19,802 nucleotides of DNA, from positions 1-19,802 of the forward strand of contig JADHUX010000001.1 in the NCBI GenBank assembly GCA_016784285.1, read 5' to 3'. Below are positions 5,292-17,624 of the stretch, in pieces. The notes under the pieces are model-generated. The model had not been told where the DNA came from, searched no databases, and saw nothing but the letters and a program-made list of their open reading frames with translations. Within the stretch, counting starts at the first letter, position 1. Every line of letters starts with the position of its first letter. The position numbers and the translations under genes were made by a program. Source of the stretch: Parcubacteria group bacterium. GTDB taxonomy: Bacteria > Patescibacteriota > Minisyncoccia > Phycocordibacterales > UBA2163.

Positions 5292-5300
5292 ACGCAAAAA

Positions 5301-5358
5301 TCGCGGGAAAAGGTCTTTCCTCGCGGAACAAAGTGGAGAGAGGTGAGACCTTGAGGAG
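5301..5358 (+). repeat. Dispersed hairpin repeat, copy A
   Basis: One of five related intergenic elements (others at 7326, 15090, 17096, 17556). Read on the plus strand it begins TCGCGGGAAAAGGTCTTTCC and ends with CTTGAGGAG. The arms AAGGTCT (5310-5316) and AGACCTT (5346-5352) pair perfectly. It lies 3 bases from the dksA-like stop codon, in the opposite orientation to that gene, and just upstream of comM. Copy B is identical over about 45 bases except at one position. Confidence 0.85.
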
Positions 5359-5361
5359 CAA

Positions 5362-5733
5362 CTATTCTTCTGGGCCTAAATGTTCTGCGCAAGTTTTAGC
5401 TGATGGATTTGCTTCGAGTCGTGCTACAGGTATTTGCTCTCCTGTATCTTCACATATTCCATACTTACCATCTTCAATCTTTTGTAATGCTTCTTTAAGG
5501 TTATTAAATCTTAATTCAAGATCTTTAACTAGAGCAATATTCTGGTCAAATGCAGCTCTTCTGTCTGAACTTTCGTTTTTATCTGCTTCTTGTATGTCAA
5601 GATTCTGCGGGATAGGCTCCCAGTCATTTGGGTTTGAAGGGTTAATCCTAGCTATCTTTTCAAGCTCTTCAGTTAAGACCTTGAGCTCTGTTTCTAACTT
5701 TTCTTTAAAATATTTTATATCTATTGTTTCCAT
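5362..5733 (-). CDS. DksA/TraR-type zinc-finger-like regulator with a degenerate finger
   Basis: A 123-residue protein of the DksA/TraR superfamily, whose members enter the RNA polymerase secondary channel and modulate transcription. The N-terminal half is a long charged helix-rich segment, probably a coiled coil. The C-terminal part carries the family finger: YGICEDTGEQIPVARLEANP followed by SAKTC-AEH. The normal C-x2-C-x17-C-x2-C is reduced to Cys, Thr, Cys, His, as in cysteine-poor DksA2- and YteA-like relatives, so zinc binding is uncertain. The start is set at the second ATG (5731-5733): the promoter TTGAGT-17-TATTAT predicts transcription beginning about 3 bases before it, whereas the ATG at 5740-5742 abuts the -10 box. 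If the longer form were used, the protein would gain MYI. Repeat copy A lies directly after the stop codon. Confidence 0.85.
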   Translation of the reverse strand: METIDIKYFKEKLETELKVLTEELEKIARINPSNPNDWEPIPQNLDIQEADKNESSDRRAAFDQNIALVKDLELRFNNLKEALQKIEDGKYGICEDTGEQIPVARLEANPSAKTCAEHLGPEE

Positions 5734-5742
5734 AATGTACAT

Positions 5743-5785
5743 ATAATATCAGCAAATTCTGATTAACTCAACCTGTTGAGTTAAT
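5743..5785 (-). promoter_or_regulatory. dksA-like gene promoter with a palindrome over the -35 box
   Basis: On the minus strand, -35 TTGAGT (5766-5771) and -10 TATTAT (5743-5748) are 17 bases apart. The -35 box sits inside a perfect 10-bp inverted repeat with a 4-base centre (5762-5771 and 5776-5785, ATTAACTCAA/TTGAGTTAAT). A dyad at this place could be an operator. It could also be an RNA hairpin at the end of the upstream transcript (the gene at 5819). Confidence 0.6.
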
Positions 5786-5788
5786 ACT

Positions 5789-5818
5789 CCAACAGCGAGG
5801 TTCAACCTCACTGTTTGG
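5789..5818 (-). other. Stable hairpin directly after the stop codon of the gene at 5819
   Basis: CCAACAG and GAGGT pair with ACCTC and CTGTTTGG around loop TCA, with one C/A mismatch and one bulged T. The stem starts at the base after the stop codon (5819-5821, minus strand). No U-tract follows, so it is more likely a 3'-end-protecting hairpin than a classical terminator. Confidence 0.55.
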
Positions 5819-6742
5819 TTATTTAAATCTAGATGATGTATGCCTTATAAAAACCTCTTCAAAGGTGTGTTGGTTTGTCGTTATGACGATAGTATTTTTA
5901 TCTATAAAAGAATAGAGTAGCACTATATCTCCATCTTCATTTCTTAAAACCCTGGTGTCTTGATTTTTTATAACGATATCACCAAAAGTGAGTGTGTTTA
6001 TTTTTGAAGAGTCGTCTGTTCGTACAATCGGTGTAACATCTATAGGTCCAAACAGTGGTGCTAAGTCATCTTTTATATATCTTTCCCATTTTAGCATTCC
6101 TGCAAAAGCGTTTTCATAAAAACTTGTCTGAAGTATTATAAACGGTTGATTACCATCAAACACATGGACACCGACCATAAACCTAGGATTAAGTGAACGT
6201 AAAAAGGACGCCGGAGCATCAGTATTGATTGCATTCAAAAAGTCTTCTGCGTCAACAAGAGATCTTTTCTGTAAACCTTCTGAATCTATGAAAGATTCTG
6301 TAATAAAAATATTCTCAATACTTCCTAGGGTTACCCTTGATTCATTGTTCAATGTACTTAGTTCGTTTAATATCTGCCTTCTTGATAAATCTGTTATATC
6401 AAACTCTTTTTCTTCTTCTGCAAAAATTATAGACGAGATTTTTGATTCAGGAGTAACTACACCTGAATCAGACTTACCATAAAAATAAAGAACAGACCCA
6501 GCTCCAAGCACTATAAGCGTAGTACTTAAAATAATAATACCAATCTTTTTAAGGCGCTTTTTTTGTTCTGGAGTGTTTTTCTTACTAGTTTTTTTAAGTC
6601 TTTTTTCATTTTCAGCTGTGGCAGCACTCACGACAGATGTGTTTTGCTCTGACATTACTTGAGCAAGGTCGTCTTTATATGTACGAAGCACTTTCAACGA
6701 CGAAGAATTATCTGATTGTGGTTGTGGTTTTTCTTCTGGCAT
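5819..6742 (-). CDS. Unknown single-pass membrane protein
   Basis: A 307-residue protein that I do not assign to a known family. Residues 1-65 are polar and cytoplasmic-looking, with the phrase LKVLRTYKDDLAQVM followed by a Lys/Arg-rich stretch (about 48-66). One strong hydrophobic segment (about 67-88) follows, then an exported region of about 220 residues with alternating charged and hydrophobic stretches and no cysteines. The basic residues before the membrane segment predict a cytoplasmic N-terminus. The layout is typical of uncharacterised Parcubacteria envelope proteins. It starts 12 bases after the stop of the NYN gene, with no recognisable Shine-Dalgarno sequence, so the two are probably co-transcribed. 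Tandem hairpins follow its stop codon. Confidence 0.75.
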   Translation of the reverse strand: MPEEKPQPQSDNSSSLKVLRTYKDDLAQVMSEQNTSVVSAATAENEKRLKKTSKKNTPEQKKRLKKIGIIILSTTLIVLGAGSVLYFYGKSDSGVVTPESKISSIIFAEEEKEFDITDLSRRQILNELSTLNNESRVTLGSIENIFITESFIDSEGLQKRSLVDAEDFLNAINTDAPASFLRSLNPRFMVGVHVFDGNQPFIILQTSFYENAFAGMLKWERYIKDDLAPLFGPIDVTPIVRTDDSSKINTLTFGDIVIKNQDTRVLRNEDGDIVLLYSFIDKNTIVITTNQHTFEEVFIRHTSSRFK

Positions 6743-6754
6743 TTTTAAATATTC

Positions 6755-7273
6755 TTATCTACCTCTATACCCCATTAAATATCTTCTTGGGTTGTCAGAC
6801 ATATCGATGAAGTCGTCTGCTGCTTCTTTAAGTTTACCTGAAGACGATTTACCAAACGATATTACTTCTACCTGACATCCTTCTTTCATTTTAAGATATT
6901 CAACAAGTGGTATGAAGTCTCCGTCGCCCGTTGCAAGTATTACTGCGTCTAGCTTTGCTGCCATAGAGACAGCGTCTATAGCTATACCTACGTCCCAGTC
7001 GGCTTTTTTAGCACCACCAAAGAACACTTGGAGTTCTTTACTCTTGATTTCAATACCAAGTTTTCCTAATGCTTCAAAGAAGCTGTTTTCCTCTCCTGAT
7101 TCTGTAGTAACCACATATGCACTAGCACGGATAAGATCTCTTCCTGCTAGAGCGTCTTTTATAACGTTACCAAAGTTTACTTTTGCTTTATATAAATTTT
7201 TAGCACTATGGTATAAGTTTTGTGTATCTATAAAAATACCAACGCGCTGATTTTTGTGTTTTATAACTGACAT
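6755..7273 (-). CDS. NYN-domain (PIN-like) putative RNase, LabA/DUF88 type
   Basis: A 172-residue single-domain protein. The NYN family shares the PIN nuclease fold and cuts RNA with a cluster of acidic residues binding divalent metal. The expected acidic positions are present: D16 in FIDTQNLY, D92/D94 in ADWDV with D100 downstream, and D117/D119 in LATGDGDF. This strand-Asp, 'D-D' helix, 'TGDGDF' order is the hallmark of the NYN/LabA group. The substrate cannot be inferred. It appears to lead a two-gene operon with the unknown membrane protein at 5819, which could imply a membrane-located partner, but that is only neighbourhood evidence. No strong ribosome-binding site precedes the ATG at 7271-7273. 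Confidence 0.88.
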   Translation of the reverse strand: MSVIKHKNQRVGIFIDTQNLYHSAKNLYKAKVNFGNVIKDALAGRDLIRASAYVVTTESGEENSFFEALGKLGIEIKSKELQVFFGGAKKADWDVGIAIDAVSMAAKLDAVILATGDGDFIPLVEYLKMKEGCQVEVISFGKSSSGKLKEAADDFIDMSDNPRRYLMGYRGR

Positions 7274-7325
7274 AATATTAAAAGTTTAAAATGAAAAATG
7301 AAAAATGTAAAGTAACAACTTAGTA

Positions 7326-7374
7326 GAAAAAGGTCTTTCCTCGCGGAACGAAGTGGAGAGAGGTGAGACCTTTT
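7326..7374 (+). repeat. Dispersed hairpin repeat, copy B
   Basis: Nearly identical to copy A, with one substitution (AACGAAG for AACAAAG). Its pairing arms are longer: AAAAGGTCT (7328-7336) with AGACCTTTT (7366-7374), 9 bp. It lies between the S15 terminator and the NYN gene start and lacks the GCGGG and GAGGAG flanks that copy A has. Confidence 0.85.
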
Positions 7375-7375
7375 G

Positions 7376-7410
7376 AAATAAAAAATAAAAAGCGTATTAA
7401 TACGCTTTTT
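7376..7410 (-). terminator. rpsO intrinsic terminator overlapping its stop codon
   Basis: A 10-bp stem (7401-7410 with 7387-7396, loop TTAA) reads AAAAAGCGTA/TACGCTTTTT. On the minus strand it is followed by a T-rich run. The first stem bases are the last two bases of the rpsO TAA, so the hairpin begins inside the stop codon. Confidence 0.85.
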
Positions 7411-7675
7411 ATTTCTTTAGACCGAGTTTCTTTAAAATAATACCGTATCGTTTCTTGTCTTTTTTCTCTAAATATTTCAAATGCTTTCTACGTGTAGCAA
7501 CCATACTTAAAAGACCTCTGCGTGGATGCTTGTCTTTATTGTTTTTCTTGAGGTGTTTTGTAAGTTCAGTGATCCTTTTAGTCAAAATTGACACCTGTAC
7601 TTCAGGAGAACCAGTGTCTTTGTCGTGAACTTGCGCCTCTTTTATTGATTTTGCCTTCTTTTTTGTTGTAAGCAT
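7409..7675 (-). CDS. rpsO: 30S ribosomal protein S15
   Basis: 88 residues, the normal S15 length. Family landmarks are clear: DTGSPEVQVSILTKRI, LT-HLK-N-KDKHPRRGLL, and VATRRKHLKYLEKKD near the C-terminus. S15 binds the central domain of 16S rRNA early in 30S assembly. The gene is monocistronic, with its own promoter (TTGCAA-17-TATTAT, 7685-7713) and a terminator overlapping the stop codon. The predicted transcript begins about 3 bases before the ATG, leaving no room for the structured leader through which S15 autoregulates in other bacteria. Confidence 0.98.
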   Translation of the reverse strand: MLTTKKKAKSIKEAQVHDKDTGSPEVQVSILTKRITELTKHLKKNNKDKHPRRGLLSMVATRRKHLKYLEKKDKKRYGIILKKLGLKK

Positions 7676-7684
7676 AACCTCAAT

Positions 7685-7737
7685 ATAATAGCAGAAAACA
7701 GTACATTTTGCAAGTATTCTAGCTTTTCTGCTACAAT
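7685..7737. promoter_or_regulatory. Divergent rpsO / xer promoters sharing one palindromic -35 box
   Basis: TTGCAA at 7708-7713 is its own reverse complement. Rightwards it is 18 bases from TACAAT (7732-7737), whose start site would be at or next to the xer ATG (7744). Leftwards it is 17 bases from TATTAT (minus strand, 7685-7690), whose start site would be about 3 bases before the rpsO ATG (7675). Both genes would be leaderless or nearly so, and their transcription may be mutually exclusive. Confidence 0.7.
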
Positions 7738-7743
7738 ATAGAT

Positions 7744-8673
7744 ATGTCGCAAAATATTGAACAGTTAAAACGAGAATTTCTAGAATACCTTGAAATTGAG
7801 AAAGGTAGAAGCCTAAAAACCATTCAAAACTATGACCGATATCTCTCCCGCTTTATTGAATTTACAGAAATAAAGAAGCCTCAAAACATAAGTGACGATG
7901 TAGTACGCAAATTCCGCCTATGGCTTAACAGACAAGAAAGTGGGGCTGTCACAGAAGGTGTCAATGACACACTAAAGAAAAAGACTCAGAACTACTACCT
8001 CATAGCCCTCCGTGCATTCCTAAAGTTCTTACGTCGCCGTGAAATAGACTCCCTTTCCCCTGAGCGGATAGAGCTAGCGAAAGTTGGCGACCGGGATATA
8101 GATCTTATCTCAGCAGATGACCTAGAAAGACTTATGTTAGCTCCTGATGGTACTGATGTTAAAAGTCTACGAGACAAAGCGATACTTGAACTACTTTTCT
8201 CTACGGGTCTCCGTGTGTCAGAGCTATGTTCACTTAACAATGACATTGATTTGAAGCGAGACGAGTTCTCAGTACGAGGAAAAGGAGAGAAGATACGAGT
8301 AGTGTTTATTTCAAGTACTGCCAAAGAAGCTATCAGACAATATCTAGACAAAAGAAAAGACATGGACGAAGCTATGTTCGTACAGTTTGGTAAGAATGCT
8401 GTAAATGCAAAATCTTTACGACTTTCTTCTCGCTCTGTGGAGCGGATCGTAAAACACTATGCGATAAAAGCAGGTATCTCTAAAAAAGTTACTCCACATG
8501 TCGTCCGCCACAGCTTTGCCACCGACTTACTCCAAAACGGCGCTGACCTTCGTTCTGTACAAGCGCTCCTCGGGCATGCAAACATAGCAACTACTCAAGT
8601 TTATACACACGTGACAGACAAACACCTCCGTGATATACACAAAACATTTCATGGAAAAAAACGTAAAAAATAA
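7744..8673 (+). CDS. Xer-type tyrosine recombinase
   Basis: A 309-residue site-specific recombinase of the XerC/XerD group, which in most bacteria resolves chromosome dimers at dif. The N-terminal SAM-like core-binding domain covers about 1-110 (the typical 'YL-IEKGRS-KTI-NY-RYL-RF'), the catalytic domain about 120-300. The complete active site is present: R157 (STGLRVSEL), K180 (RGKGEK), H252 and R255 (PHVVRHSFATDLL), H278 (LLGHANIATTQ) and the nucleophile Y287 (VYTHV). The length and the housekeeping neighbour (exonuclease III, 3 bases downstream) favour a chromosomal Xer protein over a phage integrase. XerC versus XerD cannot be decided, and small genomes often have a single Xer. The predicted mRNA is leaderless. 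Confidence 0.93.
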   Translation: MSQNIEQLKREFLEYLEIEKGRSLKTIQNYDRYLSRFIEFTEIKKPQNISDDVVRKFRLWLNRQESGAVTEGVNDTLKKKTQNYYLIALRAFLKFLRRREIDSLSPERIELAKVGDRDIDLISADDLERLMLAPDGTDVKSLRDKAILELLFSTGLRVSELCSLNNDIDLKRDEFSVRGKGEKIRVVFISSTAKEAIRQYLDKRKDMDEAMFVQFGKNAVNAKSLRLSSRSVERIVKHYAIKAGISKKVTPHVVRHSFATDLLQNGADLRSVQALLGHANIATTQVYTHVTDKHLRDIHKTFHGKKRKK

Positions 8674-8676
8674 AAT

Positions 8677-9444
8677 ATGAAAATACTATCTTGGAACGTA
8701 AATGGCATTCGTGCAATGCACAAAAAAGAAAACTGGAAAGATTTCCTAGCAGAAAATCCAGACATCTTTTGTGTACAAGAGACTAAAGCTCACCCAGACC
8801 AACTCTCAGACGAACTCAAAAACATAAACGGATACTCTTCTTACTTTGACTACTCTAAAACCAGAAAAGGCTATAGTGGAGTAGCTATATATACTAAGAT
8901 CAAGCCAGAAAAGGTAGTTTACGGTATGGGTATAGAAGAACTTGACCAAGAAGGGCGTCTTGTAACTCTATATTTTAAAGACTTTGTGCTTATGACTGGC
9001 TACTTCCCTAACGGTGGGCAAGGTCCAGAGAGACTAAAGTATAAATTAGAATTTTATGATGCGTTTTTAGAATACATTGACGAGATCAAGAAGAGCGGAC
9101 ATAAAATAATCTTCTGTGGTGATGTAAACACAGCACACGAAGAAATAGACCTAGCCCGACCAAAAGCTAACGAAGACAACACCGGCTTCCTCCCGATAGA
9201 GCGCGAGTGGATAGACGAAGTGATGCGCCACGGATACATAGATACATTCCGACACCTAAATCCTAACAAAAAAGATATGTATAGTTATTGGGACATGAAG
9301 ACAAGAGCTCGAGACCGCAACGTAGGCTGGCGCTTGGACTATTTCTTTATAAGCTCTGACTTACAAAAGGATTTAAAAGATGCGTTTATCCTCACAGACA
9401 TATATGGCTCTGACCACGCACCTACTGGTATAAAGCTATATTAG
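8677..9444 (+). CDS. xthA: Exodeoxyribonuclease III (AP endonuclease)
   Basis: 255 residues, normal length for ExoIII, which incises abasic sites and trims damaged 3' ends in base excision repair. Family motifs: KILSWNVNGIRA (2-13), CVQETKAH with the metal-binding Glu (about 32-39), SGVAIYTK, GYFPNGGQGPERL-YKLEFY (the catalytic Tyr region), CGDVNTAHEEIDLARPK, W-LDYFF, and the terminal catalytic GSDHAPT. The gene starts 3 bases after the xer stop codon and must be co-transcribed with it. No separate Shine-Dalgarno sequence is evident, which suggests translational coupling. The nearest clear terminator is at 9722-9773. Confidence 0.96.
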   Translation: MKILSWNVNGIRAMHKKENWKDFLAENPDIFCVQETKAHPDQLSDELKNINGYSSYFDYSKTRKGYSGVAIYTKIKPEKVVYGMGIEELDQEGRLVTLYFKDFVLMTGYFPNGGQGPERLKYKLEFYDAFLEYIDEIKKSGHKIIFCGDVNTAHEEIDLARPKANEDNTGFLPIEREWIDEVMRHGYIDTFRHLNPNKKDMYSYWDMKTRARDRNVGWRLDYFFISSDLQKDLKDAFILTDIYGSDHAPTGIKLY

Positions 9445-9488
9445 ACATTTTTTACATAAATTAATTACTTAAGAGACACCTTACTAAG

Positions 9489-9497
9489 TTATCCACA
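9489..9497 (+). promoter_or_regulatory. Perfect DnaA box
   Basis: TTATCCACA, the consensus DnaA box, in the gene-free stretch after xthA. Other perfect copies in this window are at 11415-11423, 12311-12319 and 13957-13965. Confidence 0.5.
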
Positions 9498-9687
9498 GTT
9501 ATGTCCTTTACATGTCTTTTAGAAGGAGTATTATTAAATCAGACCCGACGCTGTTCTTTCAACATTTTAATAGTTTGAATTTTATATGTTTGTAAGTATA
9601 TATATCCACAACTTACTTACACATTTTGCAAAAAAAGATATTGATACATGCATATATATTAAATTACAAACTAGACTTTTTTTCTCT

Positions 9688-9713
9688 TTTATAACTTTTC
9701 CCCGAGTTATAAA
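9688..9713 (+). other. Hairpin upstream of the 9722 terminator
   Basis: TTTATAACT (9688-9696) pairs perfectly with AGTTATAAA (9705-9713) around an 8-base loop TTTCCCCG. It stands 8 bases before the terminator stem, so any transcript ending there would carry two hairpins in a row. Confidence 0.5.
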
Positions 9714-9721
9714 TACCCTAT

Positions 9722-9773
9722 AAATCGCCTTCGATCCTTTTCTCCCAATATGATCGCTACGGCGATTTTTTTT
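9722..9773 (+). terminator. Plus-strand intrinsic terminator (xthA operon or a small RNA)
   Basis: AAATCGCC (9722-9729) pairs with GGCGATTT (9761-9768), and an inner CGATC/GATCG helix lies inside the large loop. Eight T's begin within the stem (9766-9773). In the minus direction no T-run follows, so it does not serve cca. It is about 280 bases after the xthA stop codon, which is long for a simple 3' UTR. Confidence 0.75.
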
Positions 9774-9783
9774 GCCTTAAATA

Positions 9784-11324: not shown

Positions 11325-11398
11325 GCGCCCGTAGCTCAATTGGATAGAGCACTTCGCTTCGGACGAAGGGGTTGTGGGTTCAAGTCCTGCCGGGCGCA
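11325..11398 (+). tRNA. tRNA-Arg (anticodon UCG)
   Basis: A full cloverleaf: acceptor GCGCCCG/CGGGCGC, D-stem GCTC/GAGC, anticodon stem CTTCG/CGAAG with loop CTTCGGA (anticodon TCG), variable GGGTT, T-arm GTGGG-TTCAAGT-CCTGC with two G-U pairs. The discriminator A is followed by CA, so CCA is not encoded. A TATAAT box at 11309-11314 lies 10 bases upstream. Confidence 0.95.
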
Positions 11399-11470: not shown

Positions 11471-12148
11471 ATGAGAAAAGACAAAGAAAAAGCTTTATTT
11501 CTTAGAAAATCAGGCAGAAGTTACAAACAGATAAAGGAAGAACTCGGAATACCTGTGAGCACTCTTTCTGAATGGTTAAGTCCACACAAATGGTCACAAA
11601 ATATTAAAAAATCTTTAACTGAAGTAGCAAAAAAAGAGAATTCTGTACGAATTCAAAGTCTAAACAATATACGCGGTGAACATTTAAAAAAGCTGTACAA
11701 AGAGGCTGAAATAGAAGCTATTAAAGAATTTGAAGGGTTGAAGTATCATCCATTATTTATAGCTGGTATTATGATTTATTGGGGCGAAGGAGATAGAGTA
11801 ACAAAACATAATATACGTGTTTCCAATACAGACCCAGTTATGATAAAATTATTTGTAGATTTTCTAATAAAGATATGCAATGCACCAAAGAATAGAATAA
11901 AATCATCTTTATTGCTATATCCAGATCTTAACGACATAGTATGCAAAGAATATTGGTCAAAAAATGCGCTTATACCAGAGAATAGTTTTAATAAAAGTAT
12001 CTTTATTACTGGCAAACATAAGACAAAAAGATTACAATACGGTGTATGTAATACCGTATTCACTAGCACATATACGAAACGGAAACTTCTTATATGGCTT
12101 AAACTCTTATCAAAAGAGATAGTTAGTAAAGAATATTACAAAATTTAA
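11471..12148 (+). CDS. HTH protein with a possible LAGLIDADG-like endonuclease domain
   Basis: 225 residues from the ATG at 11471. The N-terminus is a helix-turn-helix of the transposase/terminase type ('FLRKSGRSYKQIKEELGIPV' then STLSEWL, about 8-34). A charged helical linker follows (about 40-90). The C-terminal part starts FIAGIMIYWGEGDR, continues VSNTDPVMIKLFVDFL and LLLYPDLND, and ends in a YGVCNTVFTST strand and basic helix. 'G--YWGEG' plus 'N-DP-MI--F--FL' resembles a small family in CPR bacteria and archaea that I associate loosely with LAGLIDADG-type folds; no direct test was possible. The frame is open upstream from 11372, but that would run into tRNA-Arg. The gene sits alone between two tRNA genes and its product is rich in Lys and Ile, so a mobile or homing origin is plausible but unproven. 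Confidence 0.7.
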   Translation: MRKDKEKALFLRKSGRSYKQIKEELGIPVSTLSEWLSPHKWSQNIKKSLTEVAKKENSVRIQSLNNIRGEHLKKLYKEAEIEAIKEFEGLKYHPLFIAGIMIYWGEGDRVTKHNIRVSNTDPVMIKLFVDFLIKICNAPKNRIKSSLLLYPDLNDIVCKEYWSKNALIPENSFNKSIFITGKHKTKRLQYGVCNTVFTSTYTKRKLLIWLKLLSKEIVSKEYYKI

Positions 12149-12154
12149 TAATTT

Positions 12155-12228
12155 GCGGGCATAGTTTAATGGTAGAACATCTGGTTGCCAATCAGACAAT
12201 GGGAGTTCGATTCTCCCTGCCCGCACCA
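12155..12228 (+). tRNA. tRNA-Gly (anticodon GCC) with encoded CCA
   Basis: Acceptor GCGGGCA/TGCCCGC, anticodon arm TCTGG-TTGCCAA-TCAGA (GCC, one G-U pair), T-arm GGGAG-TTCGATT-CTCCC, discriminator A12225, CCA at 12226-12228. It is the only tRNA here with genomic CCA. It starts 6 bases after the HTH gene stop codon. Confidence 0.95.
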
Positions 12229-12300: not shown

Positions 12301-12339
12301 TGTGTATAACTGTGGATAATACTGGGGATATGTGTATAA
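12301..12339 (-). promoter_or_regulatory. Cluster of phased DnaA-box-like sites (candidate oriC element)
   Basis: Reading the plus strand, TGTGTATAA (12301-12309), TGTGGATAA (12311-12319, exact complement of TTATCCACA), a degenerate TGGGGATAT (12324-12332) and TGTGTATAA (12331-12339) lie in the same direction at roughly 10-base steps. AT-rich sequence follows (12350-12450). The next landmark is parS at 12454. The cluster is what a DnaA-binding array would look like. No dnaA gene is in the window. Confidence 0.5.
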
Positions 12340-12453
12340 GAGACAATATTGACCAATAGTTAATTAATACGTCTTTTTAGTTAAAAATGGCTTAAAATAA
12401 GATTATTTGAAGTCAAAAGGTCATACAATAGACACAGATTGTATATTTAAACA

Positions 12454-12469
12454 GGTTTCACGTGAAACA
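12454..12469. promoter_or_regulatory. parS site (ParB-binding centromere-like element)
   Basis: GGTTTCACGTGAAACA matches the bacterial parS consensus TGTTTCACGTGAAACA at 15 of 16 positions, with the 14-base palindromic core intact. It lies in the leader of the yraN-like gene, 115 bases from the DnaA-box-like cluster. ParB nucleates on such sites to organise and segregate the origin region. A chance match this good in 20 kb is very unlikely. Confidence 0.75.
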
Positions 12470-12491
12470 TTCAGTAATTACTCTTCTACTG

Positions 12492-12507
12492 GGTTACACA
12501 TGTAACA
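12492..12507. promoter_or_regulatory. Degenerate parS-like palindrome
   Basis: GGTTACACATGTAACA matches parS at 12 of 16 positions and keeps the inverted arms GTTAC/GTAAC. It lies 38 bases from the good parS site and 17 bases before the next gene. It may be a decayed or low-affinity ParB site. Confidence 0.35.
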
Positions 12508-12523
12508 TATACTAGAATAAATC

Positions 12524-12985: not shown

Positions 12986-12986
12986 A

Positions 12987-13022
12987 CAAAAAGACATGTT
13001 TCTTATGAAACATGTCTTTTTG
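12987..13022. terminator. Bidirectional terminator of the yraN-like gene, with parS-like arms
   Basis: A perfect 16-bp stem with loop TTAT (12987-13002 with 13007-13022) has flanking A/T runs on both strands. Its centre, TGTTTCTTATGAAACA (12997-13012), matches parS at 13 of 16 positions with both six-base arms intact. It also faces tRNA-Pro on the minus strand. Confidence 0.85.
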
Positions 13023-13051
13023 TTGCGAAAAATCAAATCCCATTTAATTTT

Positions 13052-13122
13052 TCGGGGAGCCGAGAATCGAACTCGGGCCGCTCGGTCCCAAACCGAGTAC
13101 ACTACCACTATGCTACACCCCG
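13052..13122 (-). tRNA. tRNA-Pro (anticodon UGG)
   Basis: Anticodon arm CTCGG-TTTGGGA-CCGAG (TGG), T-arm CCGAG-TTCGATT-CTCGG, and the C1-G72 pair usual for bacterial tRNA-Pro. The acceptor CGGGGTG/CTCCCCG has a T-T mismatch at pair 6-67. CCA is not encoded. Confidence 0.93.
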
Positions 13123-13159
13123 TAACTTACTAATACTACACAATTTATCACTTTAACTC

Positions 13160-13199
13160 AAATAAAATAAAAACCCTTATTTATTAAAATAAAGGTTTT
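13160..13199 (-). terminator. Terminator of the gene at 13272
   Basis: On the minus strand AAAACCTTTATTT pairs with AAATAAGGGTTTT (13187-13199 with 13170-13182, one C/A mismatch, loop TAAT), followed by TATTTTATTT. It lies about 75 bases past the stop codon. Confidence 0.65.
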
Positions 13200-13271
13200 G
13201 TGTACTACATTACATAAGCCGCCACAGCTCTAAAGTTGATACTTTTGTTTATTGCCAATAATATTCAATCA

Positions 13272-13823
13272 TTAGCAACAACTATTTTCTTCTTTTGCAA
13301 CAGATGAAGTTTCTTCATCTTTGATAGACTCAAGGTTCCAGGTTTTATCCTCAAAAGAAGTTGCTTCAGCACTCTTAATGAGAGTGGTTTTTAGCCCTTC
13401 TACAGTGTCAACGTCACTAAGTTTGGCTATTGTTATGTTTTGGTCGACATCCTGATACCCAATCATCACATCAGTGATCATATTAGATACACAATTGTCT
13501 GGAGCGCTAGTTAGAATGATAGGAACCTCTTTGTTTAGAGCATCCTCTATCAAACCGGTAGCAGCTGAAATAAAACCAAAAACATCTGAACCTTTCTGCT
13601 TAGCGCGCTTCTCGGCTGTCGGGAAATTTTTGATATTAAGCAATAGACCGTTGATTTCTTTGTCGTCATCAATATCTATTGTTTTAACAGCCTCCGCTAC
13701 AGAACCCTTGAAGACAGATGATGTATTAATACCATCTAAAAGATTGTTGATCTGATCTCCAATACCCTCTGGAACGCCTACAATTAATAAATTTGTTTTC
13801 TTATTCTTCGAACTTGAATCCAT
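13272..13823 (-). CDS. Unknown soluble protein with alpha/beta (receiver-like) pattern
   Basis: 183 residues that I do not place in a family. After a polar start (MDSSSKNKK), TNLLIVGVPEGIGDQINNLLDG and GLLLNIKNFPTA suggest alternating strands and helices. VPIILTSAPDN near the middle looks like a receiver- or Rossmann-type strand. The catalytic Asp/Lys set of a response regulator is not evident. The tail (about 150-183) is acidic and low complexity and ends Cys-Cys. The start is fixed at ATG 13821-13823 by an AGGAGG Shine-Dalgarno sequence 8 bases upstream, the best in the window; a TTG 6 bases earlier is too close to it. A TTGACA-18-TATGGT promoter lies about 100 bases upstream. This gene, unlike its neighbours, is set up for leadered, efficient translation. 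Confidence 0.75.
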   Translation of the reverse strand: MDSSSKNKKTNLLIVGVPEGIGDQINNLLDGINTSSVFKGSVAEAVKTIDIDDDKEINGLLLNIKNFPTAEKRAKQKGSDVFGFISAATGLIEDALNKEVPIILTSAPDNCVSNMITDVMIGYQDVDQNITIAKLSDVDTVEGLKTTLIKSAEATSFEDKTWNLESIKDEETSSVAKEENSCC

Positions 13824-13920
13824 AAACAACTCCTCCTGTTATGCAAAATGTCATAAAAAATGAGTAAATTAGCCGTGGCAGGCTTATGCAATATGAAACT
13901 TTAAAGACAACGAAGTTCCT

Positions 13921-13950
13921 ACCATATCACGATCTTTAATGTACTGTCAA
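13921..13950 (-). promoter_or_regulatory. Promoter of the gene at 13272
   Basis: On the minus strand, -35 TTGACA (13945-13950, consensus) and -10 TATGGT (13921-13926) are 18 bases apart. This would give a leader of about 90 bases ending in the AGGAGG site. A perfect DnaA box lies 6 bases upstream of the -35 box. Confidence 0.6.
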
Positions 13951-13956
13951 TATTTT

Positions 13957-13965
13957 TGTGGATAA
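13957..13965 (-). promoter_or_regulatory. Perfect DnaA box
   Basis: TGTGGATAA on the plus strand (TTATCCACA on the minus). It lies in the divergent gap between the gene at 13272 and mscS and could allow DnaA to influence either promoter. Confidence 0.45.
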
Positions 13966-14023
13966 ATAGTATATTTGCAATACAAAGCAATATATTATAG
14001 AATATGTCAATAATTACATAAAT

Positions 14024-15082
14024 ATGACTAATTTAATATCAAATATCAATTTAAGTGCAGAATTCCTAGGCAATTCAACCCTTCAGTACGCTAAAGCTTT
14101 AGGGATTTTCATCGTATTAGTAGTAGTTTTCAAAATAGCCCAATATATAGTCCTCAAAAGACTAGGGAAGCTTGCGGAAAAGACTAAGACAGACATAGAT
14201 GACACCCTTATAAGCATTACAAAGAGCTTTAAGCCACCTTTCTATTGGTTTTTGGCATTTTACTTTGCAATGAAGTTCCTAGCCTTAAATGAGCTTACAA
14301 TGAAGATTATCACTGGTATCTTAGTAGTATGGGTTGTATACCAAGTTATTGCAGGAATACAGATACTTATAAACTATATTTTAAAGAAAAGATTTGCTAA
14401 AGAAGACGATGCTGGAGCAAAGTCAGCTATAAACTACATAAGTCTGATCTCAAAAGTATTGCTATGGGCAATAGGTCTACTTCTTATACTTTCTAACCTT
14501 GGTGTGGACGTGACATCACTCATTGCGGGGCTTGGTATTGGTGGTATTGCTATTGCGTTCGCACTTCAAAACATACTCTCTGATCTGTTTAGCTCATTTG
14601 CGATCTACTTTGACAAACCATTTGCAATAGGAGACTTCATAGTAACTGGAAGCCACAGCGGAACAGTGGAGAAGATCGGAATCAAGACAACTCGTATAAG
14701 AGCACTCCAAGGAGAGGAGATCGTGATCTCAAACAATGAACTTACAAGTGCGAGAATACAAAACTTTAAGAAGATGGAGAAGAGGAGAGTCGTTTCTTCT
14801 TTTGGAATACTTTATGAAACTCCGATTGAAAAAATAAAAAATATAAAGCAACTTGTAAAAAATATTTTCAATAAATTAGAAAACACAGAATTTAGTAGAA
14901 TACATTTTAAACAACTTGGAGACTTCTCACTTAACTTTGAAGTTGTCTACAACATAACAACAGGGGACTACAATACATTTATGGATGCGCAAGAAGAGTT
15001 CAACCTAAAACTCTTAGAAGTATTTGAAGAAGAAGGTATTGAGTTTGCTTACCCAACTCAAAAACTATTTGTAACGAAGTAA
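14024..15082 (+). CDS. mscS: MscS-family mechanosensitive ion channel
   Basis: A 352-residue membrane channel that opens under membrane tension to release solutes in hypo-osmotic shock. Hydrophobic segments lie at about 24-44, 74-92, 96-118 and 140-162. The pore-lining helix is the Gly/Ala-rich segment SLIAGLGIGGIAIAFALQN (about 168-186), followed by the conserved LSDLFSSFAIYFDKPFAIGD and the beta domain (GTVEKIGIKTTRIRALQGEE, VISN-ELTSARIQNF). The C-terminal cytoplasmic vestibule ends in FAYPTQKLFV. With about five segments it is slightly larger than E. coli MscS (286 residues, three segments) but much smaller than MscK. It is monocistronic, divergent from the gene at 13272 and convergent with the protease gene, with repeat copy C between the two stop codons. 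Confidence 0.94.
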   Translation: MTNLISNINLSAEFLGNSTLQYAKALGIFIVLVVVFKIAQYIVLKRLGKLAEKTKTDIDDTLISITKSFKPPFYWFLAFYFAMKFLALNELTMKIITGILVVWVVYQVIAGIQILINYILKKRFAKEDDAGAKSAINYISLISKVLLWAIGLLLILSNLGVDVTSLIAGLGIGGIAIAFALQNILSDLFSSFAIYFDKPFAIGDFIVTGSHSGTVEKIGIKTTRIRALQGEEIVISNNELTSARIQNFKKMEKRRVVSSFGILYETPIEKIKNIKQLVKNIFNKLENTEFSRIHFKQLGDFSLNFEVVYNITTGDYNTFMDAQEEFNLKLLEVFEEEGIEFAYPTQKLFVTK

Positions 15083-15089
15083 AATATCT

Positions 15090-15158
15090 CTCCTCAATGA
15101 AGAAGGAGTTTCGTAACTTCTTCATCGTCTATCACGAGGAACGACCTTTTCCCGCGAT
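15090..15158 (-). repeat. Dispersed hairpin repeat, copy C
   Basis: On the minus strand it starts TCGCGGGAAAAGGTCGTTCC, contains a 9-bp hairpin (15117-15125 with 15097-15105) and ends TTGAGGAG. The hairpin insert is shared with copy E, with one difference. The GGTC-type 3' arm seen in A, B and D is absent. It lies 4 bases after the protease stop codon and 7 bases after the mscS stop codon. Confidence 0.8.
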
Positions 15159-15162
15159 CTTT

Positions 15163-16326
15163 TTATCTCTTATTTAATTCATTCTCTAATAACTGAGTAA
15201 GAGCGGGTGCTAAGCTTTCATTAAATATATCTGCTTGAGCTGAGACGTCACTACTGAACAAAGCCTGTAAGTTAAACCCTGTGTCCTTTACAAAGCTTCT
15301 GTTTATATGGCCTATAGCGATAGCTCTTAGGTCACGCTCTCCTGTGGTCTCTGCTACAGAACTCGTTACTATGATCCCTGTTAGCTCGTTTCTATCGTTT
15401 ACTACAGCCCCTCCTGACGAACCTTGTTGTGCTACGACAGATCCACCTATTGAAAACAGATCTAAAGTTCCTTCCTTAAATGTAAATACTTCCATCACTT
15501 GTGTCACACTAGAACTTATATACAAACTTTTAGAAATAGCGATACCGCTTAGGAATCCTGCCGGATACCCTGCAAGCAGTACATTGTCTCCTTTAGTGAT
15601 ACTACCACTGTCGTAGAAAGGTTTAATAAACGAAAACTTGTCTGGGATAGTTTTAGTTGGATCAGTTCGACCTGTTATAAGAAGTAGTGCGTAGTCGTCC
15701 TCACCTGTGCCTTTAGGTTCTTGCTGTATAATACCGTTTGCATTTGCCTTAATCCAAGACGGAGATATGAAAAGTGGTTTTGCAGTATAAAGAGGTTTAG
15801 CAGGAGAGCCTGTTCTTATAACACAATTAATAAAATCTTCTGTTACATAATCTTCGATTAAAAAGTACTGAGCAACGTGCGCATTGGTAAGGATGATTCC
15901 TCGTTCGTCTATGACGACCCCACTTCCTGTCACTGGTTTGAACAAACCGCCACTCTTCGTAGTACAAAATATATTTACGAGTGCCTCTCTAGTAACTTCG
16001 TTTATTGTTGTGAACGATATCTGAGGAACTTCCTCTACGACAACTTCCTGAGCAGGCTCTTCCGCCACCTCTGGTACAGGTTTGACAGGAGCTGTCTGCT
16101 CTACAACCACTTCAGCCTCTTCTTCTACCATTACTATTTCTTGTTTTTCTTCCACTAGCTGTGATTCTGTAATTTCTGACATGATGGTCACCTCTTCCTC
16201 CAGAACCTGTACTGCCTGCAACTCTGTATCTTGCACTTGAGGTGTTACTTCGTTCGGCTCATAAGAAACCAGTGCAAAAAACACTACAATAATTAGTATA
16301 AAAATGATATACAAGACTGACTTCAT
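15163..16326 (-). CDS. Membrane-anchored trypsin-like (S1C/HtrA-like) serine protease without PDZ
   Basis: A 387-residue envelope protease. Residues 4-21 form a hydrophobic anchor or uncleaved signal. A Glu/Val/Pro-rich spacer (about 22-103) should hold the enzyme away from the membrane. The chymotrypsin-fold domain carries the triad: H150 in TNAHVA, D210 or D211 in GEDDYALLLI, and S304 in GSSGGAVV. No PDZ domain follows, only about 50 residues ending in a helical tail, so it is not a full DegP/HtrA. Cysteines at 121 and 168 could pair. It is divergent from the acidic-peptide gene. A TATAAT box at 16339-16344 on its strand gives a leader of about 5 bases; the -35 is weak. Substrate unknown. 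Confidence 0.87.
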   Translation of the reverse strand: MKSVLYIIFILIIVVFFALVSYEPNEVTPQVQDTELQAVQVLEEEVTIMSEITESQLVEEKQEIVMVEEEAEVVVEQTAPVKPVPEVAEEPAQEVVVEEVPQISFTTINEVTREALVNIFCTTKSGGLFKPVTGSGVVIDERGIILTNAHVAQYFLIEDYVTEDFINCVIRTGSPAKPLYTAKPLFISPSWIKANANGIIQQEPKGTGEDDYALLLITGRTDPTKTIPDKFSFIKPFYDSGSITKGDNVLLAGYPAGFLSGIAISKSLYISSSVTQVMEVFTFKEGTLDLFSIGGSVVAQQGSSGGAVVNDRNELTGIIVTSSVAETTGERDLRAIAIGHINRSFVKDTGFNLQALFSSDVSAQADIFNESLAPALTQLLENELNKR

Positions 16327-16338
16327 AATATTATCTAT

Positions 16339-16344
16339 ATTATA
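16339..16344 (-). promoter_or_regulatory. -10 box of the trypsin-like protease gene
   Basis: TATAAT on the minus strand, 12 bases before the ATG, so the leader would be about 5 bases. No good -35 is seen at the expected distance. Confidence 0.45.
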
Positions 16345-16391
16345 GCACTTTATTTACATAGGCTGACCACCTTATATAACCATTGTACGGG

Positions 16392-16419
16392 TTGACAAAT
16401 ATTTTCATTCGTGTATACT
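16392..16419 (+). promoter_or_regulatory. Strong promoter of the acidic-peptide gene
   Basis: TTGACA (16392-16397) and TATACT (16414-16419) with a 16-base spacer. The predicted start is near 16426, giving a leader of about 94 bases. Together with the ncRNA promoter it is one of the two most consensus-like promoters in the window. Confidence 0.75.
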
Positions 16420-16430
16420 ATAAGGTATAG

Positions 16431-16458
16431 AAGCTTAGGGTTTTCCTGAGTTTTTATT
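16431..16458 (+). promoter_or_regulatory. Attenuator-like hairpin in the leader of the acidic-peptide gene
   Basis: CTTAGG (16434-16439) pairs with CCTGAG (16445-16450, one G-U pair) around GTTTT, extendable by A-U pairs to 9 bp, and is followed by TTTTTATTTATTTATT. It has the shape of a weak intrinsic terminator immediately after the predicted start site. A palindrome CCTCTAGAGG lies further down the leader. Confidence 0.5.
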
Positions 16459-16519
16459 TATTTATTAAGCAAGTTTAAATAGACCTCTAGAGGCACGTTT
16501 AGGCTTTAAATAAAAAAAC

Positions 16520-16630
16520 ATGGAAGAAAACATGAACGTAGAAGGAGCAGAAAATACAGCTCCTGAAGCTACTCCTGAAACTCCTGCAACAGAAGGTGCA
16601 GAAGAGAATACAGAAGAAGCAGCTGCATAG
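16520..16630 (+). CDS. 36-residue acidic Ala/Glu/Pro/Thr peptide
   Basis: The ATG at 16520 follows an A-rich stretch and the TAG is at 16628-16630. The product starts MEENMNVEGAENTAPEATPE and ends EENTEEAAA. It has no hydrophobic or basic segment, is low complexity and should be disordered and soluble. The evidence that it is expressed is its setting: a near-consensus promoter, a 94-base structured leader, and a strong terminator 7 bases after the stop codon. No purine-rich AGGAGG-like site is present. I do not recognise a family. The locus could alternatively make a regulatory RNA in which the ORF is incidental. Confidence 0.6.
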   Translation: MEENMNVEGAENTAPEATPETPATEGAEENTEEAAA

Positions 16631-16636
16631 TCAGCA

Positions 16637-16673
16637 ACAAACCCCATCGCTTTGCGATGGGGTTTGTTTTTTT
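16637..16673 (+). terminator. Strong intrinsic terminator after the acidic-peptide gene
   Basis: A 14-bp perfect stem (16637-16650 with 16654-16667), loop TTT and a seven-T run (16667-16673). It ends 5 bases before the 3' end of the opposing tRNA-Gly gene. Confidence 0.93.
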
Positions 16674-16678
16674 GTCTG

Positions 16679-16749
16679 TGCGGGTAGGGGGAATCGAACC
16701 CCCGTCTACTGCTTGGAAGGCAGTCATTCTACCACTAAACTACACCCGC
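16679..16749 (-). tRNA. tRNA-Gly (anticodon UCC)
   Basis: Acceptor GCGGGTG/TACCCGC (one G-U pair), anticodon arm ACTGC-CTTCCAA-GCAGT (TCC), T-arm GGGGG-TTCGATT-CCCCC, discriminator A. CCA is not encoded. A TATTAT box lies about 10 bases upstream of the 5' end on its strand. Confidence 0.94.
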
Positions 16750-16791
16750 AATTTACGTATAATAGCAGACTTTTTATTTTTTTCACAGTTA

Positions 16792-16820
16792 TTGACACAA
16801 TTCATCAAATCCTATATTAT
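16792..16820 (+). promoter_or_regulatory. Consensus promoter of the ncRNA at 16823
   Basis: A perfect -35 TTGACA (16792-16797), 17-base spacer, -10 TATTAT (16815-16820). The predicted start falls at about 16823-16827, exactly where the first helix of the ncRNA begins. Confidence 0.8.
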
Positions 16821-16822
16821 CT

Positions 16823-17018
16823 ACCTTAGGCAGTGTTTAGTGATCCTCACTGAAAGTCTTACTTGTTTTAGGGACCAAGCAAGACGAGAAGGATAATCGA
16901 TTCCCGAATTATCTAGATTATACGGTAAGTGAGGTATATTACACGATACATGCGCGCGACCTAAGGACAAAACCCTAACAGCACAGCAGCCAACCTTAAA
17001 AAAGTTGGCTGTTTTTTT
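16823..17018 (+). ncRNA. Structured non-coding RNA of unrecognised family, about 195 nt
   Basis: No convincing ORF is present, yet there is a consensus promoter and a strong terminator. Helices seen by eye: P1 CCTTAGG/CCTAAGG (16824-16830 with 16960-16966); P2 CCTCACT/AGTGAGG (16845-16851 with 16928-16934); P3 GTCTTACTTG/CAAGCAAGAC (16856-16865 with 16876-16885, one mismatch); P4 GATAAT/ATTATC (16892-16897 with 16908-16913). The P3 loop TTAGGG (16868-16873) is complementary to CCCTAA in the 3' tail (16973-16978), a possible pseudoknot. AGTGA-TCC-TCACT (16839-16851) competes with P2, so a switch is possible. Length and the closed long-range stem recall 6S RNA, but the branched P3/P4 interior does not fit a simple rod. 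I see no RNase P, tmRNA or SRP RNA signatures. It is followed by an opposing HU gene, so it is not a riboswitch for an adjacent ORF. Confidence 0.75.
16987..17018 (+). terminator. Intrinsic terminator of the ncRNA
   Basis: CAGCCAAC (16987-16994) pairs with GTTGGCTG (17004-17011) around a 9-base loop, followed by seven T's (17012-17018). Confidence 0.93.
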
Positions 17019-17032
17019 ATTTAAATATAAAC

Positions 17033-17077
17033 AAACAACAAAACCCGCAAAGCAAAGCTTTGCGGGTTTTGTTGTTT
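17033..17077. terminator. Very long perfect hairpin between the ncRNA and hup
   Basis: A 21-bp perfect stem with an AAA loop (17033-17053 with 17057-17077) has a GC-rich core and A/T-rich flanks, so it can act on both strands. It probably ends the hup transcript (minus strand), after repeat copy D, and backs up the ncRNA terminator. Confidence 0.8.
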
Positions 17078-17095
17078 CTTCTAGAAAAAAATAAC

Positions 17096-17158
17096 ACTCC
17101 TTAAGGTCGCACCTCTCCCGTCGCTTCACTCCTCCTCGAGGAACGACCTTTTTCCGCG
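17096..17158 (-). repeat. Dispersed hairpin repeat, copy D
   Basis: On the minus strand it starts CGCGGAAAAAGGTCGTTCC and ends AAGGAGTG. Arms AAGGTCG (17144-17150) and CGACCTT (17103-17109) pair perfectly: where copies A and B have T-A at the inner pair, D has G-C, a compensatory change. It starts 1 base after the hup stop codon, in the same direction. Confidence 0.85.
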
Positions 17159-17159
17159 T

Positions 17160-17432
17160 TTATTTTACTGCGTCCTTTAGAGCTTTTGCTGCTCTAAACT
17201 TAGGAATTCGCATTGCTTGAATCTGAATGCTTTCTCCTGTGCGAGGGTTTCGCCCTTGGCGAGCTGCTCGCATTTTTGTTGAGAATATCCCAAGACCTGC
17301 TAGTGAAACCTCTTCACCGCCTTTTAGGCCTTCTACGATAGAATCAACTACCATATCTACTGCTTTTTCTGCTTGAACCTTTGTACCTCCAAGCATTTCA
17401 TGAACTTTCTCTGCAATTGTTGCTTTATTCAT
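17160..17432 (-). CDS. hup: HU-family DNA-binding protein
   Basis: A 90-residue histone-like protein that bends and compacts DNA as a dimer. It shows the standard order: helical dimer interface (MNKATIAEKVHEML to AVDMVVDSIVEGL), then VSLAGLGIFSTKMRAARQGRNPRTGESI with the flexible beta arm and its intercalating Pro in RNPRTG, and the C-terminal helix PKFRAAKALKDAV. Length and the unextended arm favour HU over the IHF subunits. Its promoter is TTGCTT-16-TATAAT, with an inverted repeat across the -10 box. The leader is about 55 bases. The 3' UTR carries repeat copy D and then a 21-bp hairpin. Confidence 0.96.
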   Translation of the reverse strand: MNKATIAEKVHEMLGGTKVQAEKAVDMVVDSIVEGLKGGEEVSLAGLGIFSTKMRAARQGRNPRTGESIQIQAMRIPKFRAAKALKDAVK

Positions 17433-17482
17433 ATTATGTAATGGTGTGAATTTATGTACTTCTAAACTCGACCGTTTTATTA

Positions 17483-17521
17483 CTTACTAGATAATTATAT
17501 AGTAAGCCACTATTTAAGCAA
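17483..17521 (-). promoter_or_regulatory. hup promoter with a dyad across the -10 box
   Basis: On the minus strand, -35 TTGCTT (17516-17521), 16-base spacer, consensus -10 TATAAT (17494-17499). CTTACTA (17483-17489) and TAGTAAG (17500-17506) form a 7-bp inverted repeat flanking the -10 box exactly, a plausible operator. Confidence 0.7.
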
Positions 17522-17555
17522 TACCCTAGTAAATATGTGTGGAAAACTCATTTAT

Positions 17556-17624
17556 ACTCCTCAAGGACGACCTATGAAGAAGGAGTTTCGTATCTTCTTC
17601 ATCGAGGAAAGACCTTTTCCCGCA
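17556..17624 (-). repeat. Dispersed hairpin repeat, copy E
   Basis: On the minus strand it starts GCGGGAAAAGGTCTTTCC, carries the same internal 9-bp hairpin as copy C (one base differs in the loop region), then AGGTCGTCC and CTTGAGGAG. It begins 6 bases after the rny stop codon, in the same direction. The outer arms pair only through AAGG/CCTT. Confidence 0.82.

What the first reader, a model, noticed from the sequence alone, without database searches (positions are those of the whole stretch)
5301..17624. Five-copy dispersed hairpin repeat, always 3' of a gene, with a compensatory base-pair change
Copies at 5301-5358 (+), 7326-7374 (+), 15090-15158 (-), 17096-17158 (-) and 17556-17624 (-) share the head GCGGGAAAAGGTCKTTCCTCG (B lacks the GCGGG; D has GCGGA) and, except B, the tail AGGAG. 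A, B and D form arms AAGGTCT/AGACCTT or AAGGTCG/CGACCTT: T-A in A and B becomes G-C in D, which is covariation and argues for selection on structure. C and E carry a different internal hairpin of about 29 bases. A, C, D and E start within 1-7 bases of a stop codon (dksA-like, protease/mscS, hup, rny); B follows the rpsO terminator. Orientation relative to the gene varies, as expected if the paired form matters. This looks like a REP/MITE-like family with a role in mRNA 3' ends, possibly mobile.
Basis: partly seen in the sequence, partly recalled or inferred. Interest (0 to 1): 0.82.

Follow-up and report, generated by a model that had tools for sequence, protein, structure and literature searches.

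The report
Mobile hairpin repeats in Patescibacteria genome
A short DNA hairpin has spread to about 45 places in the small genome of an ultra-small bacterium, some of them in frame inside essential genes, and where it inserted, the new DNA on one side mirrors the old host DNA on the other, a clue to how such parasitic repeats copy themselves.

Summary
The five copies are real and belong to a mobile hairpin family. A covariance model finds 46 matches in the 376-kb genome (43 at E <= 0.01), 14 and 3 in two congeners and 0 in three others, and strong matches in 31 of 397 genomes of the order. Four of the five window copies were found in no congener. Some copies lie in frame inside essential genes (LeuRS twice, RNase HII, RsmA; elsewhere RecJ, GatB, MnmA, Tgt), as Rickettsia palindromic elements do. 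So "3' of a gene" holds here but is not the rule, and an mRNA 3'-end role is not supported as the main function. The structure covaries strongly. Its outer stem differs from copy to copy yet stays complementary. At 14 sites with an empty relative, where the left flank is old and the right flank new, 31 of 38 cells pair, against 47% in shuffles (0 of 5000 as high) and 22 of 56 in the empty sites: the right arm looks like an inverted copy of the left target, not a pre-existing palindrome. No transposase gene flanked by the element was found. Other Y1 transposase genes there carry palindromes of their own with copy-specific complementary arms. New variant of a known kind (REP/RPE).

The parts
5299..5364 (+). 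Copy A: full element, simple apex; between the dksA-like gene and the Mg-chelatase-like (yifB type) gene, antisense to both
   Evidence: genes by Pfam; no element at the aligned places in G001, G002 and G004, no match there in G005
7319..7384 (+). Copy B: full hairpin, degenerate outer arm (AGT instead of YGC, no AGGAG); downstream of rpsO
   Evidence: absent at this place in G005, G002, G001 and G004
15084..15159 (-). Copy C: head and outer arms, apex replaced by a second hairpin, inner tail half missing; between the convergent MscS-like and trypsin-like genes
   Evidence: weak model match E 0.35; absent in G005, G002 and G001
15097..15127 (-). Second hairpin (GAAGAAG...CTTCTTC type) inside copy C
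   Evidence: repeat family D13, 97% identical to the one in E; other places
17091..17161 (-). Copy D: AAGGTCG/CGACCTT version; 1-2 nt after the stop of the gene at 17160-17432 (hup by eye)
   Evidence: absent in G005, G002, G001 and G004; right arm new, left old
17551..17627 (-). Copy E: apex replaced by the second hairpin; after the RNase Y gene
   Evidence: shared with G005 (L098) with paired changes in both arms; absent in G002, G001 and G004
17574..17604 (-). Second hairpin (GAAGAAG...CTTCTTC type) inside copy E
   Evidence: repeat family D13

Best explanation
The copies belong to a non-autonomous mobile hairpin DNA family (REP/RPE-like) of Patescibacteria, about 60-85 nt long. On the head strand: target-derived arm, YGC, GGGAA, AAGGTCT, TT, CCTC, variable apex, GAGG, TG, AGACCTT, GAGGA, GCR, complementary arm. 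Shown: high copy number; presence/absence between relatives; covariation in nearly all stems; in-frame insertions in essential genes; at most of the sites compared, a new right arm complementary to the pre-existing left flank. Inferred: a single-stranded hairpin is joined by its head end to the target; its 3' end folds back on GC and copies the adjoining target before the second junction closes, so that each copy gets its own arm. Also inferred: a Y1 (HUH) REP-type transposase acting in trans makes the joints. The element is mainly selfish; copies persist next to stop codons or in frame in tolerant loops because other insertions are selected away.
For: 46 matches in the own genome, 14, 3, 0, 0, 0 in five congeners. 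Window copies A-D found in no congener, E only in G005; a G005 copy (L092) has its empty site in the window. In-frame copies in LeuRS (two sites), RNase HII and RsmA and an LTD-like protein of the own genome, and in LeuRS, RecJ, GatB, MnmA and Tgt of other genomes (names). Covariation: score 0.336 against 0.142 in shuffles, 0 of 500; 0.315 against 0.132 on 63 distinct rows. Arm copying: 31 of 38 cells complementary where left is old and right new, shuffled mean 47%, 0 of 5000; the empty sites' own flanks 22 of 56. The new left part is exactly YGC in 5 of 14 sites (L015, L117, L092, L027, window D). Y1_Tnp genes of these genomes carry gene-specific palindromes with copy-specific, complementary arms: 18 of 32 loci, 16 with a copy inside the frame.
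Against: Polarity is only suggestive: the new right part is longer in 10 of 14 sites, shorter in 3 (L121, L082, window C), tied in 1; sign p 0.09. At murG and nusG (names by eye) the flanks carry direct repeats instead. The relatives are 11-27% divergent in the aligned pieces of G005, so some 'empty' sites may have changed or lost the element. No Y1_Tnp gene flanked by the element was found in 32 loci, and G001, 99% complete, has copies (2 at E <= 0.001) but no Y1_Tnp match. Paired changes between orthologous copies can also arise by correction after insertion.
Confidence: 0.6

Rival explanations
1. The element moves by some ordinary route, and the complementary arms arise afterwards by replication template switching inside the hairpin (quasipalindrome correction, a mechanism recalled from the literature and not read here), which makes imperfect flanks perfect without selection.
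For: E and its G005 orthologue L098 lost one base on both arms; L115/L082 differ by T-A against G-C in the inner helix and have quite different apices; at one LTD-like gene the same point holds the element in opposite orientations in G000 and G005.
Against: In 10 of 14 sites it is the tail side that is new; correction alone would not be tied to the orientation of the element, but the bias is weak (p 0.09).
Confidence: 0.25
2. A structured RNA element kept by selection, acting in mRNAs (3'-end stability or processing).
For: 20 of 44 copies lie within 40 nt of a stop codon. G-T pairs exceed A-C in 16 copies sense to a gene (11 to 2) but not in 12 antisense copies (5 to 5), which is what pairing in mRNA would give. 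Strong covariation.
Against: Copies inside coding frames in both orientations, patchy presence, absence from orthologous sites, no Rfam family, few terminator-like hits.
Confidence: 0.07
3. The element inserts into the centre of pre-existing palindromes, so both arms are old.
For: YPAL elements of Yersinia are reported to use targets that span or adjoin dyad symmetry (PMC2229807, passage). The empty site of L117 is itself TTTT/AAAA.
Against: Own flanks of the 14 empty sites pair in 22 of 56 cells (39%), no better than the shuffled 47%.
Confidence: 0.04
4. A conventional MITE whose target-site duplication is a self-complementary word such as TTAA, which would look like complementary arms.
For: TTAA on both sides in L015 and L123; direct repeats ATTAAAAA in L121 and ATGTTTTTTAA/ATGTTTTTTTAA in L082.
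Against: Many arms are not self-complementary, for example AAATTATTGC/GCAATAATTT at L109.
Confidence: 0.04

Closest known systems
Rickettsia palindromic elements (RPE; known here through passages of PMC2229807 and PMC10969869)
   Same: Short palindromic repeats, intergenic and in frame inside unrelated conserved genes, translated as extra peptides; no known transposase.
   Different: RPEs are 105-146 or about 150 bp and are described from Rickettsia; this element is 60-85 nt, in another phylum, with its own sequence; copy-specific complementary arms are not mentioned in the passages read.
REP / REPtron with TnpAREP (RAYT) (PMC8266576, PMC6006769, PMC3733652, passages)
   Same: Imperfect hairpins with conserved unpaired bases, many copies, mostly intergenic, often near stop codons, sometimes inside genes; Y1 transposases in the same genomes; repeats inside tnpAREP genes are listed for one subclass.
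   Different: No GTAG foot; no Y1 gene flanked by this element; outer stem taken from the target.
CGTC-tagged repeats (PMC3733652, section read)
   Same: Short palindromes without a dedicated transposase, also intragenic; the tag is CCTC in some repeats, and the reverse strand here begins (G)CTCCTC.
   Different: Stems of 8-9 bp that begin with A-T pairs and CCA tails are not seen; here the hairpin is longer and enclosed by variable arms.
Bacterial MITEs such as YPAL/RU-2, ERIC, Correia (PMC2229807, passages)
   Same: Small, non-autonomous, stem-loop, empty/filled sites in relatives (YPAL), in-frame fusions.
   Different: No constant terminal inverted repeat with a regular target-site duplication was found.
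IS200/IS605 single-strand transposons (PMC6006769, passages)
   Same: Proposed here as the kind of chemistry: single-strand hairpin recognition and a defined left junction.
   Different: The left flank here is not one fixed target word, and the right arm is a copy of the left flank.

Membership tests
REP (GTAG type, RAYT-associated) | GTAG (or close) tetranucleotide at the 5' foot of the hairpin | tested here: not met
   Consensus foot is YGCGGGAA on the head strand and GCTCCTC on the other
REP (GTAG type, RAYT-associated) | Cognate Y1 transposase gene flanked by the repeat (REPtron) | tested here: not met
   0 of 32 Y1_Tnp loci in ten genomes flanked by it in a motif search; the own genome is only 70% complete, so a cognate gene could be missing
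REP (in the wide sense) | Many dispersed, mostly intergenic hairpin copies | tested here: met
   46 matches in 376 kb; 9 of 44 inside an ORF of at least 120 aa
CGTC repeats | CGTC/TGTC/CCTC end, stem of 8-9 bp beginning with A-T, CCA tail | tested here: not met
   CCTC next to the stem on the reverse strand, but no CCA tail and a different stem
Rickettsia palindromic elements | In-frame insertion into unrelated protein genes | tested here: met
Rickettsia palindromic elements | Sequence similarity to an RPE family | not tested
   No RPE sequence was compared; only a recalled motif was searched, with no match
MITE | Terminal inverted repeats of constant sequence | tested here: not met
   Arms differ from copy to copy
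MITE | Target-site duplication | tested here: inconclusive
   Clear direct repeats at L121 and L082, possible TTAA at L015 and L123, not evident at the others of 14
Known RNA family (Rfam 15) | Match at gathering score | tested here: not met
   Only four tRNAs in the window
Intrinsic terminator | G+C-rich stem followed by a T run | tested here: inconclusive
   Two weak hits touch C and A, none lies on B, D or E

The most novel reading that the evidence does not exclude
A class of hairpin DNA in Patescibacteria, covering this element and the palindromes of the Y1 transposase genes, moves as single-stranded hairpins that copy the target as an inverted arm by fold-back, self-primed synthesis at insertion. 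Each copy then carries its own target signature, and repeated rounds build nested hairpins. In the passages read, no such mode of integration is described for REP or IS200/IS605 elements.
Probability: 0.3. Interest if true: 0.82.

Novelty: new variant of a known kind. Interest (0 to 1): 0.6.

Why it matters
[quoted passage not shown] passage). Here filled and empty sites carry a readable trace, one arm old and the other its new inverted copy, which makes the integration step testable. It also shows a very small genome that carries a selfish hairpin about every 8 kb, some of them translated inside essential enzymes if those genes are expressed as they stand. And it warns that covariation in such repeats need not mean an RNA function, because arm copying or template switching can give compensatory-looking pairs without selection.

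Tried and rejected
Rejected: chance; a known RNA family; terminator as the main identity; insertion into palindromes. Without result: a recalled motif of RPE-like repeats of other phyla, no match in the 253 loci then held; a Y1_Tnp gene flanked by the element; the strand test by G-T against A-C, which favours the head strand overall (44 to 16) but not in the antisense copies, so ssDNA against mRNA stays open (the classes were my own lists). The pattern scan of genome contigs also hit two Bacteroidota records (L071, L077) without the tail, taken as chance matches in coding DNA.

Dropped before a count: of 26 filled/empty comparisons, 12 were left out. L010, L095, L013 (two sites) and L108: the relative has 22-32 nt of its own at the site. 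Window B: likewise 20 nt. L109:1003, L116, L122, L125 and L096: one flank aligns poorly. And a second comparison of window C (with G001; its new left part is the longer, 16 to 3). The 14 kept had both flank scores at least 21 and at most 16 unaligned nt in the empty site. In one search the empty-site control used 4 positions per site, the filled sites up to 6.

In-frame copies were found by looking for ORFs that span a copy (63 rows, of which ten spans were translated; 16 loci; 12), so out-of-frame insertions would be missed, and no claim is made that all genic copies are in frame. The phylum and order scans scored only 13 candidates per genome and are lower bounds.

Literature: 10 searches, open-licence papers only and mostly capped listings (8 to 25 rows shown). 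No listed title or abstract describes such repeats in Patescibacteria; two searches found 0 papers. Papers seen: passages of PMC3733652 (with two whole sections), PMC2229807, PMC10969869, PMC6006769 and PMC8266576; outline and abstract of PMC2996958.
Full report
Observation. The window is contig C19 of a 376,478-base genome (43 contigs, 70% complete). Copies of its phylum mate G110 and its congener G005 read the same as public records titled Candidatus Microgenomates (JACPGU) and co234_bin49 (JABGQE), and a further copy comes from a record titled Patescibacteria (JAHIYV). So the host is taken to be a Patescibacterium; this is inference. All five copies are at the stated places, and the head motif is far above chance. 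It occurs 20 times in the genome, the reversed control 0 times.

Anatomy. Eighteen aligned copies give, on the head strand, YGC-GGGAA-AAGGTC[T/G]-TT-CCTC-apex-GAGG-TG-[A/C]GACCTT-GAGGA-GCR, enclosed by an outer stem that differs from copy to copy. There the structure pairs 95.3% of cells, the covariation score is 0.336 against 0.142 in shuffles (0 of 500), and 5 of the 6 outer pairs have changes on both sides. On 63 distinct rows: 93.0% of cells paired, score 0.315 against 0.132 (0 of 500), 13 of 19 pairs with a change on both sides; that alignment was fitted to the model and so leans towards it. GGGAA/GAGGA stays an unpaired, purine-rich internal loop. The apex is modular: often a short stem that closes a GAA-like triloop, or a second hairpin (GAAGAAG...CTTCTTC) that occurs in both orientations with variable complementary arms of its own.

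Copy number and distribution. Model R1 gives 46 matches in G000 at E <= 1 (43 at E <= 0.01), 14 in G005, 3 in G001 (2 at E <= 0.001), 0 in G002, G003 and G004. At E <= 1e-5 it matches 5 of 379 genomes sampled over the phylum and 31 of 397 of the order, in 19 of 179 genera; both counts include G000 and are lower bounds, since 13 candidates per genome were scored. The spread is patchy, as for a mobile family.

Mobility. At the orthologous places, B is absent from G005, G002, G001 and G004; C from G005, G002 and G001; D from G005, G002, G001 and G004; E is present in G005 and absent from G002, G001 and G004; A is absent from G002, G001 and G004, and no G005 match lies at its place. The G005 pieces aligned to the window are mostly 73-89% identical. 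G005 copy L092 has its empty site in the window.

In-frame copies. In G000, copies lie inside open frames of LeuRS (two sites), RNase HII, RsmA and an LTD-like protein (LTD is a guess by eye). Elsewhere: the LTD-like protein of G005; LeuRS at the first site in L070 (the same record as L271 of G484) and near the second site in G222; RecJ in G032; GatB in G222; MnmA in G522; Tgt in G714 and, cut by a contig end, in G715; and two methyltransferase-like proteins that stay below NCBIfam cut-offs. NCBIfam names LeuRS, RNase HII, RsmA, RecJ, GatB, MnmA and the G714 Tgt above cut-off; the G715 Tgt passes only the superfamily cut-off. PDB matches of RNase HII leave out the inserted stretch; the best RsmA match has gaps across it. 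The relatives aligned at the LeuRS, RNase HII and RsmA sites have no element there, but other sequence of 22-32 nt, so these sites do not give a clean junction. In the LTD-like gene G005 and G000 carry the element at the same point in opposite orientation, and G001, G002 and G004 lack it.

Arms. In 59 copies put in register, the outer stem pairs well to position 5 (42-54 of 59 Watson-Crick) and then drops to 26 of 59. With 25 copies, dealing right flanks among copies lowers pairing at positions 2-5 from 68-84% to 42-49%. Twenty-six filled/empty comparisons were scored by one procedure; 14 sites were kept. Where the left flank is old and the right flank new, 31 of 38 cells at positions 3-8 are Watson-Crick pairs; the shuffled mean is 47%, and 0 of 5000 shuffles reach the observed value. 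The empty sites' own flanks pair in 22 of 56 cells. The new left part is exactly YGC in five sites (L015, L117, L092, L027, window D). Clear cases: L109 near 2458, old AAATTATTG, new GCAATAATTT; L092, old AAATAA, new GCATTATTT. Against: the new right part is longer in 10 sites, shorter in 3, tied in 1 (p 0.09), and L082 and L121 (next to murG- and nusG-like genes, by eye) show direct repeats with a long new left part.

Structure over time. Orthologous copies show paired changes: E/L098 differ by one base on each arm; L115/L082 differ by T-A against G-C in the inner helix and have quite different apices. Selection on pairing or template-directed correction can do this. G-T pairs exceed A-C on the head strand, 44 to 16 over all helices of 63 distinct rows (binomial p 0.0004). 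By class over all 68 rows: 5 to 5 in 12 copies antisense to a gene, 11 to 2 in 16 sense copies, 33 to 9 in the other 40. One strand seems to be the folded one overall, but the antisense copies do not show it, so DNA against RNA is not settled.

Transposase. Y1_Tnp matches: 6 in G000, 5 in G005, 0 in G001, 1, 2 and 2 in G002, G003 and G004; 6, 6, 3 and 1 in G222, G032, G048 and G110. In these 32 loci a motif search finds the element beside none of the genes; one element-like sequence lies about 1 kb from the gene in L263. But 18 of the 32 have a gene-specific perfect palindrome at least twice near the gene, 16 with a copy inside the stop-to-stop frame, 10 with copies at both ends; L026, with a bulged palindrome, was missed by that strict scan. 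Outer arms often differ between copies of one core and stay complementary, for example AAAAAA, ATTCAA and AAAAC around TAAAGGAC in L199; in others (L194, L259) they are alike. Of four such proteins scanned, L199, L195 and L257 match NCBI's REP-associated tyrosine transposase model below its cut-off and L026 matches nothing. Repeats inserted in tnpAREP are listed for subclass 2.4 in PMC6006769 (table passage).

Reading. The data show a mobile hairpin family and, at most compared sites, a new right arm complementary to the old left flank. The joining enzyme and the fold-back step are inferred. Correction by template switching after insertion is the main rival. A role at mRNA ends is possible for single copies but does not explain the family.

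Noticed in passing
L023, L193-L196, L198-L200, L255, L257, L259, L260, L264-L269, and L026 (Y1_Tnp loci of G000, G003, G004, G005, G222, G032, G048, G110): Y1_Tnp genes carry gene-specific perfect palindromes (loop mostly 3 nt) before, inside and after the gene, often with outer arms that differ between copies and stay complementary.
   Followed up: partly
L194:953-3224 (G003, around the Y1_Tnp frame 1357-2049): Seven copies of the palindrome (AT)CCAAGGACAGTCCTTGG(AT) within 2.3 kb, a dense local array.
   Followed up: no
window 15097-15127 and 17574-17604; L109:2458-2534, L110:966-1038, L111 near 1204; reverse orientation in L115 and L124: A second hairpin, GAAGAAG..CGAAACTC..CTTCTTC, sits at the apex of several copies in both orientations, with variable complementary arms.
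   Followed up: partly
L028 (G005) and L126 (G000): Same insertion point in an LTD-like gene, opposite element orientation: independent hits on one site, or inversion in place.
   Followed up: partly
L013:1456-1525 (G000) and L070:1962-2031: In-frame copies at the same place in LeuRS (before VFTTR.DT) in genomes of different genera; a second LeuRS place is hit in G000 and G222.
   Followed up: no
window 11474-12148: A 224-aa ORF between two tRNA genes (11325-11398 and 12155-12225) has no Pfam match.
   Followed up: no
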